DNA of 64,000 nucleotides from the NCBI RefSeq assembly GCF_001561955.1, contig NZ_CP014223.1:496001-560000 (forward strand), in the 5' to 3' direction. A program made the position numbers and the translations under genes. This document shows, in pieces, positions 48,399 to 57,734 of the stretch. Below the pieces are notes generated by a model. That model was given only the letters and a program-made list of their open reading frames with translations. It was not told where the DNA came from and made no database searches. This stretch comes from Anaerotignum propionicum DSM 1682. Its GTDB lineage: Bacteria; Bacillota; Clostridia; Lachnospirales; Anaerotignaceae. Positions within the stretch are counted from its first letter, which is position 1, and each line of letters opens with the position of its first letter.

Positions 48399-49935
<1,537 letters not shown>

Positions 49936-55937: not shown

Positions 55938-55984
55938 ATAGGTCTTCTATGAAATGCTTTTATTTCATAGAGGGCCTATTTTAG
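55938..55984 (+). terminator. Terminator of the feo operon
   Basis: ATAGGTCTTCTATGAAA pairs with TTTCATAGAGGGCCTAT (with small interruptions), then TTTTAG. It marks the end of host sequence on the left side of the IS110 element. Confidence 0.8.
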
Positions 55985-56044
55985 TACCATAAAAGTGTAA
56001 GTGTTAAACACATCATTAGTGCTAAAACATTTGCACTTATTTCT

Positions 56045-56131
56045 TTATAATAAAGGGAGTAGTTGGTCTGGCGTGGCCTATTTTGGATTTATACATCCGT
56101 CACAAAAACCGTCAACCACCCCTTATTATAA
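56045..56131 (+). ncRNA. Candidate bridge RNA core of the IS110 element
   Basis: TTATAATAA (56045-56053) pairs with TTATTATAA (56123-56131). GGG pairs with CCC next to it, and GTTG (56062-56065) with CAAC (56113-56116). The enclosed loops include a small GGAT/ATCC hairpin. In IS110 elements the left non-coding end codes a bridge RNA with internal loops that pair with target and donor DNA. The position, upstream of the transposase, and the shape fit. Further small stems lie at 56150-56192. Guide segments were not assigned. Confidence 0.5.
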
Positions 56132-56251
56132 GCATTCGATTAAGCAGGTTGAAACTCATAAATGAGCTTTCGTGTAACGAACTAAAATGAATTGTAATAA
56201 GTGTGGATGGTAACAACTACAAATATTTTTTGATTTGGAGGGATGGAGTCA

Positions 56252-57451
56252 ATGATTAGTGTTGGAATTGATATTTCAAAAGGAAAGAGTACGGTTTGTA
56301 TTTTAAAACCATATGGAGAGTTGATTTGTTCACCGTTTGAAATAGAACATACAGAGCAAGGATTATCTGAATTGTCATCTATGCTTTTAAGATTTAATGA
56401 AGACGTTAAAGTTGTAATTGAGGCAACAGGAATCTATCATCTTCCGGTGTTTGATTTTCTGCAAGAACGAGGGATTTTTGTAGCTGTAATAAACCCATTT
56501 GAAATGAAACAGTACAGAAGTCAAGGACTTAGGGCAATAAAAACAGATAAGCAGGACTCCATTGCAATAGCAAATTACGGAATTGATTACTGGTTTCGCC
56601 TCAAAAAATACGAAATGTCCGAAGGTATTTATCAAGAACTTAAAATATTGGGCAGACAGTATTCACATTATATGAGAATGAGAATAGAGAGTGTACAGTC
56701 CTTGACACATTTGTTGGACTATACAATGCCTGGTATAAAAAAATTGTTGAAGGGATGGCAAGATTCAACTGGTAAAGACAAATTATCAGATTTTGTAGAG
56801 ATGTATTGGCATTTCGATAATATAACAAAACTGTCAGAGATAGATTTCATTAATAATTATTTAGCGTGGGCAAAAGAAAAAGGATACCATCAGAACCATA
56901 ATAAAGCCGTCAAGATTTATTCCCTGGCACAAGATGGTATCCCTACATTGCCTGCTGAAATGGAATCAACTCAGATTATGATTCAGCAGGCAGTTGGTGT
57001 ATTGAGGCAAGTCAATACTACCTTGAAGACTATTTTAACACGGATGAAAGAACTCGCCAAGCAGTTGCCAGAATATTCTGTAGTAAGGTCAATGGGGGGA
57101 GTTGGAGATGTATTAGCACCAAAATTAATAGCAGAAATTGGTGATATTCGTAGATTTCATAGCAGCAGGGCTTTGATTGCATTTGCAGGAATAGATGCTC
57201 CACCATACCAATCAGGGCAATTTATAGGAACGAATCGTAAAATAAGCAAGCGAGGTTCCTCGACGCTAAGAAAAATCGGATATGAAGTGATGAGGGTCTT
57301 AAAGACACACAGTGCACCAGCAGACAGCTCTGTTTATTGGTATATTTTGAAAAAAGAATCTGAAGGCAAAGCTAAGAAATTGGCAAAAATTGCAGGTCTC
57401 AATAAATTTCTGCGGATATACTATGCACGAGTAAAAGAAGTATATCAATAA
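56252..57451 (+). CDS. IS110-family transposase (recombinase)
   Basis: The 399-residue protein has the RuvC-like DEDD N-terminal domain, ISVGIDISKGKSTVCIL (first Asp), VVIEATGIYHLPVF (Glu), RAIKTDKQDSIAIANYG (the Asp pair). It has a middle helical region and the C-terminal Transposase_20 domain with SMGGVGDVLAPKLIAEIGDIRRFHSSRALIAFAGIDAPPYQSG, then RKISKRGSSTLRKIGYEV, which carries the catalytic Ser (KRGSS). ATG 56252 gives good spacing from GGAGGG; ATG 56243 overlaps it. It appears intact and so may be active. Confidence 0.95.
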   Translation: MISVGIDISKGKSTVCILKPYGELICSPFEIEHTEQGLSELSSMLLRFNEDVKVVIEATGIYHLPVFDFLQERGIFVAVINPFEMKQYRSQGLRAIKTDKQDSIAIANYGIDYWFRLKKYEMSEGIYQELKILGRQYSHYMRMRIESVQSLTHLLDYTMPGIKKLLKGWQDSTGKDKLSDFVEMYWHFDNITKLSEIDFINNYLAWAKEKGYHQNHNKAVKIYSLAQDGIPTLPAEMESTQIMIQQAVGVLRQVNTTLKTILTRMKELAKQLPEYSVVRSMGGVGDVLAPKLIAEIGDIRRFHSSRALIAFAGIDAPPYQSGQFIGTNRKISKRGSSTLRKIGYEVMRVLKTHSAPADSSVYWYILKKESEGKAKKLAKIAGLNKFLRIYYARVKEVYQ

Positions 57452-57469
57452 AATCAAATCTAGTATTAG

Positions 57470-57498
57470 AAGACTGGCTGAATGAATCCAGTCTTTTT
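57470..57498 (+). terminator. Terminator after the transposase gene
   Basis: AAGACTGG pairs with CCAGTCTT, followed by TTT, 18 bases after the stop codon. Confidence 0.8.
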
Positions 57499-57533
57499 AG
57501 TCATGTGTGAAAAAAGATGGTTTATAAAAAAGG

Positions 57534-57583
57534 AAACCTGCTAGAAGTCAAATTAACTATTGACTTTTCTTAGCAGGTTTTTG
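57534..57583. repeat. Long imperfect hairpin near the right end of the IS110 element
   Basis: AAACCTGCTA-GAAGTCAA pairs with TTGACTTTTC-TTAGCAGGTTT, followed by TT. It may be a terminator for the region to either side or a structure at the right end of the element. Confidence 0.6.
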
Positions 57584-57734
57584 CAGAAAGCCCAGGGTGT
57601 GCCACTATTTTTTTTATTACGTCATACTAATTTTAAACACTAAGAAAGGTGTAAGGAAATACGTGAGAATCGATGGAAATTCTGTGACAATGTTACGAAT
57701 CTTTCTGGTTGAACAACAGATTACGGAATAGTAT

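What the first reader, a model, noticed from the sequence alone, without database searches (positions are those of the whole stretch)
55985..56251. Candidate bridge RNA upstream of an intact IS110 transposase
IS110 recombinases are known to be guided by a bridge RNA from a non-coding end. Here about 250 bases before the transposase contain an 87-base stem (9-bp outer helix plus GGG/CCC and GTTG/CAAC inner helices) with open internal loops, plus smaller stems. The transposase keeps its D-E-D-D residues and KRGSS serine motif, so the element may still be active. The guide loops would predict its target.
Basis: partly seen in the sequence, partly recalled or inferred. Interest (0 to 1): 0.58.

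Follow-up and report, generated by a model that had tools for sequence, protein, structure and literature searches.

The report
Bridge-RNA transposon that targets terminators
This is a recently mobile bacterial jumping gene whose left end encodes a guide RNA, and the guide sequence matches the transcription "stop signals" into which it and its relatives have inserted, so it appears to be an RNA-guided element aimed at the ends of genes.

Summary
Confirmed, and more specific than proposed. Ends come from a second copy in the same genome (one indel apart) and a 99% copy in Anaerotignum neopropionicum. The left target guide (GGCCTATTTT, 56075-56084) matches the left flank 10/10. Across relatives each guide fits its own flanks better than permuted flanks (left: 36 flanks, 0 of 100,000; right: 30, 0 of 100,000; 54 further loci found with a covariance model: 0 of 100,000). 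Donor guides match the element's own ends. The targets are mostly intrinsic terminators: the element sits between hairpin and U-tract. Of T-rich-guide insertions, 22/36 plus 19/25 (held out) have the hairpin, against 8/29 for other guides. Related species show the uninterrupted terminators; one matches the predicted target 13/14. In 17 of 22 distinct right ends the element's own hairpin abuts the captured U-tract, which would rebuild a terminator. RNA expression and activity are untested. Bridge RNAs are known; I found no report of terminator targeting in the papers searched.

The parts
55939..55978 (+). Host intrinsic-terminator hairpin (end of the feo operon), the left target
   Evidence: 18-bp stem, score 21.5, ends at the insertion point; syntenic uninterrupted terminator in a sister species
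55979..57582 (+). IS110 element, about 1.6 kb (ends ambiguous within the T runs 55979-55982 and 57578-57582; TT core inferred)
   Evidence: blastn of copies, aligned ends, second genome copy identical but for one indel
55979..55988 (+). Left end / right donor half (TTTTAGTACC)
   Evidence: shared by the 39 aligned relatives apart from a few changes
55985..55990 (+). Candidate -10 (TACCAT) that meets the -35 at 57560 only in the circular form
   Evidence: 17-nt spacing in 22 of 22 distinct junctions
55993..56038 (+). Bridge RNA 5' stem-loop
   Evidence: 13-bp stem; 3 pairs with two-sided changes
56045..56131 (+).
56075..56084 (+). Left target guide GGCCTATTTT
   Evidence: 10/10 match to left flank 55973-55982; permutation over 36 flanks
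56101..56108 (+). Right target guide CACAAAAA (reverse complement TTTTTGTG)
   Evidence: 6/8 here, 8/8 at the A. neopropionicum copy; permutation over 30 flanks
56142..56150 (+). Left donor guide AAGCAGGTT
   Evidence: matches right end AGCAGGTT 57572-57579; L076 changes in both
56151..56171 (+). Donor-binding-loop apical helix
   Evidence: pairs 182-201 and 183-200 with 12 and 11 two-sided changes
56181..56187 (+). Right donor guide ACTAAAA (complement of left end TTTTAGT)
   Evidence: RNAalifold pairs it with the left end
56243..57451 (+). IS110 DEDD transposase, 402 aa (399 aa if started at ATG 56252)
57471..57499 (+). Hairpin plus T run after the stop codon: candidate transposase terminator
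   Evidence: read from the sequence
57534..57579 (+). Right-end hairpin whose 3' arm is the left donor half, flush against the target-derived U-tract
   Evidence: z = -4.9 for the genome copy with the identical right end; 17 of 22 distinct right ends z <= -2.6
57560..57565 (+). Candidate -35 (TTGACT)
57578..57590 (+). Captured target U-tract and right flank

Best explanation
This is an IS110-group element whose left end encodes a bridge RNA. The target-binding loop carries a left guide reading 'last bases of a terminator stem plus T-run' (GGCCTATTTT) and a right guide reading the rest of the T-run (TTTTTGTG); the donor-binding loop reads the element's own ends (AGCAGGTT | TTTTAGT). By analogy with IS621, the recombinase uses this RNA to recombine a circular intermediate into intrinsic terminators, between hairpin and U-tract, in one orientation. 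The host hairpin keeps a short T-run from the left end, and in most relatives the element's right-end hairpin takes over the host U-tract, which should recreate a terminator and make insertion nearly neutral. Shown: anatomy, guide-flank and guide-donor matches, insertion sites, uninterrupted sites. Inferred: RNA synthesis from the circle-junction promoter, catalysis, terminator activity, selective benefit. Confidence is for the bridge-RNA reading (about 0.95) with terminators as the main target of this clade (about 0.85); the terminator-rebuilding step alone is about 0.5.
For: Guide versus own left flank: 7.97/10 against 6.92 permuted, 0/100,000, n=36; without the final TTT 3.92/7 against 3.15, 1/100,000. 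Right: 6.93/8 against 6.00, 0/100,000, n=30. Held-out loci: 8.65/12 against 7.16, 0/100,000, n=54, including sister clades with unrelated targets. Donor: L076 has AAGCAAGTT in guide and AGCAAGTT in right end. Structure. Hairpin score >=8.5 at 22/36 insertions against 30/116 non-coding sites matching a guide >=9/10, Fisher 1.4e-4; held out, 19/25 with T-type guides against 8/29 with other guides, Fisher 4e-4. Uninterrupted site of the A. neopropionicum copy in a third species: hairpin then GGTCTATTTTTGTG against predicted GGCCTATTTTTGTG, 13/14; feo site GAGCCTATTTTTTTTGTGG in a fourth. Two near-identical genome copies.
Against: No RNA or transposition data. The window's right guide fits only 6/8. 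14 of 36 first-set insertions and 6 of 25 held-out T-guide insertions lack a clear hairpin, so the terminator is common, not obligatory. Unoccupied guide-like sites in the own genome have a hairpin in 7 of 29, so the excess at insertions may partly reflect purging of intragenic insertions. The right-end hairpin is absent from 5 of 22 right ends. The species of the feo comparison has diverged; the G004 site for the second copy keeps no clean terminator. The -10 TACCAT is a weak sigma-70 match. TTATTA at 56123 can pair with either the target or the donor stem.
Confidence: 0.88

Rival explanations
1. The guide simply reads a short sequence, and terminators are over-represented because insertions in genes are lost and intergenic GC-then-T sequences are often terminators; nothing about terminators is selected.
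For: Only 7 of 29 unoccupied guide-like sites in the genome have the hairpin; 14 of 36 insertions lack one; sister clades with the same scaffold target other short sequences.
Against: Enrichment persists against non-coding guide-matched controls (22/36 versus 30/116) and tracks guide type in held-out loci. Guides of many elements keep the stem-end-plus-T-run form while the rest varies, and most right ends carry a hairpin flush to the U-tract.
Confidence: 0.4
2. The recombinase or bridge RNA also recognises the hairpin itself (as proposed for group IIC introns), in addition to sequence.
For: Hairpin excess beyond guide match; two non-T-guide insertions also follow long perfect hairpins (L184, L157).
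Against: Insertions without hairpins exist; non-T guides are nearer background (8/29); IS621 works on a short duplex target (recalled, in line with the passages of PMC11208160 read).
Confidence: 0.15
3. The left-end structure is a cis-acting leader of the transposase mRNA, not a guide.
For: It lies directly upstream of the CDS on the same strand.
Against: Loop segments vary with each copy's flanks, which a leader would not do.
Confidence: 0.02

Closest known systems
IS621 and its bridge RNA (PMC11208160, PMC11208158; passages read)
   Same: DEDD-serine recombinase, bridge RNA in a long left end, 5' stem-loop then target- then donor-binding loop, left guides matching top strand and right guides its complement, predicted promoter across the RE-LE junction
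   Different: IS621 targets REP elements with a CT core; here the core lies in a T-run, the target is an intrinsic terminator and the right end often carries its own hairpin. Protein similarity is low (E 1e-15, two separate stretches).
ISEc21 and other IS110/IS1111 seekRNA elements (PMC11187229; passages read)
   Same: Non-coding RNA from the IS selects a target that differs between elements
   Different: Targets named in the passages seen are linear sites, attC and REP; 'terminator' occurs 3 times there, always for plasmid constructs
Group IIC introns (PMC7923331; passages read)
   Same: Mobile RNA-guided elements inserting just after a terminator stem-loop
   Different: Retrohoming ribozymes, unrelated enzyme

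Membership tests
IS110 family, IS110 group | DEDD RuvC-like domain plus Transposase_20 domain with catalytic serine | tested here: met
   Pfam PF01548 2e-33, PF02371 4.7e-19; NF033542 207 bits, cut-off 140; D10 E60 D102 D105 S324 by alignment to 8wt6
IS110 family, IS110 group | Longer non-coding end upstream of the transposase | tested here: met
   About 265 bases before the CDS, about 130 after it
IS110 family, IS110 group | No IS1111-type subterminal inverted repeats | not tested
   Not searched systematically
Bridge RNA | 5' stem-loop plus two stem-loops with large internal loops, conserved across orthologues | tested here: met
   the donor stem's outer helix is ambiguous
Bridge RNA | First loop complementary to target flanks and changing with them | tested here: met
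Bridge RNA | Second loop complementary to donor ends | tested here: met
   Constant match AGCAGGTT and ACTAAAA, plus one compensatory case, L076
Bridge RNA | Transcribed RNA that binds the recombinase | not testable with these tools
   Needs small-RNA sequencing and binding assays
Bridge RNA | Match to a curated Rfam family | tested here: inconclusive
   No family at gathering score; only chance-level hits below it. Whether Rfam 15 holds a bridge RNA family was not checked.

The most novel reading that the evidence does not exclude
A widespread clostridial IS110 lineage has guides evolved to read a functional class of host sites, intrinsic terminators, and carries a terminator-like donor end, so that each insertion swaps the host hairpin for its own and leaves termination intact on both sides; sister lineages on the same RNA scaffold have been re-aimed at other generic signals, including Shine-Dalgarno sequences.
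Probability: 0.5. Interest if true: 0.75.

Novelty: new variant of a known kind. Interest (0 to 1): 0.6.

Why it matters
It gives a predicted guide, target, donor and uninterrupted site for an element that may be recently active, from anaerobic Clostridia, and suggests that bridge-RNA elements can use terminators as safe harbours. That makes testable how RNA-guided transposons evolve target choice, and offers a bridge recombinase system with natural target sites in many genomes.

Tried and rejected
Rfam at gathering score and at E <= 1 found no matching family. The explanation of the hairpins by guide match alone was tested with controls of increasing strictness and with genome-wide guide-like sites; it explains part but not all of the excess. 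A first genome search used a 7-T target; uninterrupted sites later showed that 5 T is the better register. Upstream-gene orientation was weak evidence only: 22 of 54 T-guide insertions follow a same-strand ORF end by 15-200 nt. A first attempt at the guide extraction failed for most rows because of a pattern length and was redone. An internal promoter at TATAAT 56046 was considered and dropped (no -35 at proper spacing, by eye). Structure prediction and fold search were not used. Rows left out: 39 of 76 loci scanned had a recognisable left end (the other 37 were more distant, truncated or duplicates); 3 of the 39 had too little left flank; one search used the 30 with both guide and right end; one search used 22 distinct right ends (7 of 39 loci had none, the rest were duplicates); I entered 56 of the 70 model matches (14 with 69.7 bits or less omitted), of which 54 were used; 5 of these were re-anchored on CTACTACAAT by script.

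Full report
WHAT IS THERE. The window is bases 496001-560000 of a single-contig 3.12-Mb genome. Its genus is inferred to be Anaerotignum: the same-genus genome G001 has a contig of the same length and match position as A. neopropionicum NZ_LRVM01000005.1. The transposase at 56243-57451 is a complete IS110-family protein. Copies define the element: a second copy in the same genome (99.7%; over the element it differs only by one extra T, after 56384, which frameshifts it), a 99.3% copy in A. neopropionicum, and relatives mostly at 59-88% protein identity in Lachnospiraceae and other Clostridia, two viral contigs, one plasmid and one metagenomic phage record.

THE RNA. RNAalifold on 30 distinct left ends gives the same target stem and, tellingly, pairs the very left end TTTAGT with ACTAAA in the last loop, which is the expected donor-guide complementarity. 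Counted on the named structure, 97.5% of cells pair, against 41-50% when slid; covariation 0.190 against 0.127 shuffled, 0 of 500. Helices of the target stem vary mostly on one side or not at all, so they rest on conservation rather than compensation.

GUIDES AND TARGETS. [quoted passage not shown] Here the left guide GGCCTATTTT equals the left flank GGCCTATTTT exactly. Over 36 distinct flanks the guide matches its own flank at 7.97 of 10 positions with a sliding register (6.92 in permutations, 0 of 100,000 as high), 6.92 against 6.15 in fixed register (2 of 100,000), and 3.92 of 7 outside the final TTT (3.15; 1 of 100,000). Right guides: 6.93 of 8 against 6.00, and 3.93 of 5 outside the first TTT against 3.00, 0 of 100,000 each, n = 30. 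A covariance model built from the 30 left ends matched 72 of 397 genomes of one related family and 29 of 391 of the class at E <= 1e-4. In 54 further loci the flank fits its own guide at 8.65 of 12 against 7.16, 0 of 100,000. These include clades with quite different targets, for example GGGCTAATTT, ACAGTCCCT, AATTCCAA and CTCCTTTC, which removes the worry that T-runs drive the result. Matches are imperfect in many copies; identical guides occur at differing flanks.

DONOR. The left donor guide AAGCAGGTT matches the right end AGCAGGTT; L076 has AAGCAAGTT in the guide and AGCAAGTT in the right end. The circular junction would join TTGA(C/T/A)N, 17 bases and TACCAT or TGCCAT in 22 of 22 distinct junctions, comparable to the junction promoter described for IS621.

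TARGETS ARE TERMINATORS. The window copy follows an 18-bp hairpin after the feo genes; the second copy and the A. neopropionicum copy also follow hairpins. Scores of at least 8.5 occur at 22 of 36 insertions, against 107 of 549 and 30 of 116 non-coding control sites with guide match of at least 8 and 9 of 10 (Fisher 1.8e-7 and 1.4e-4). In held-out loci, 19 of 25 with T-type guides against 8 of 29 with other guides. For the A. neopropionicum copy, an aligned third species (G007) has the hairpin AGACCTAATCC...GGATTAGGTCT followed by ATTTTTGTGC uninterrupted, and both flanks align: the predicted target GGCCTATTTTTGTG is met at 13 of 14. For the window copy, species G006 has the feo terminator ending GAGCCTATTTTTTTTGTGGG, with synteny on both sides. 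For the second copy the aligned species G004 gave no clean uninterrupted terminator. Against a strong reading: only 7 of 29 unoccupied guide-like sites in the genome have hairpins (30 of the 45 sites were held as loci, one being the occupied site), so either structure is also read or intragenic insertions are purged. The data do not decide.

RIGHT END. In 17 of 22 distinct right ends the last 58 bases form a hairpin (z -2.6 or lower) ending exactly where the target-derived T-run begins; 5 lack it (L076, L079, L080, L082, L102). Insertion would thus give host hairpin plus T-run on the left and element hairpin plus host T-run on the right. That this preserves termination is inference.

KNOWN OR NEW. 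Bridge RNAs and target diversity are established. Searches for IS110 with bridge RNA and terminator, rho-independent terminator, transcription terminator and insertion site, or insertion sequence with intrinsic terminators gave no paper describing terminator targeting by an IS110 element among the titles and abstract starts listed; I read passages of PMC11208160, PMC11208158, PMC11187229, PMC9208149, PMC3875467, PMC5395568 and PMC7923331. Subscription papers and preprints are largely outside this library. Group IIC introns offer the precedent of RNA-guided elements after terminator stems.

Noticed in passing
They may target ribosome-binding sites.
   Followed up: partly
L221 (own genome C1:1864335-1864571): A third bridge-RNA-model match in the same genome (E 8e-13) with no complete IS110 gene beside it (one 19-aa tblastn match): orphan or decayed element.
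   Followed up: partly
window 48399-49932: A 16S rRNA gene followed by a tRNA and a PadR-like gene (name by eye); Rfam finds no 23S or 5S gene in the window, so the 16S gene appears unlinked.
   Followed up: partly
   Followed up: no
window 56121-56137 and 56193-56201: Conserved CTTATTA can pair with the upstream TATAATAA or the downstream TAATAAG, so target and donor stems may be alternative folds.
   Followed up: partly
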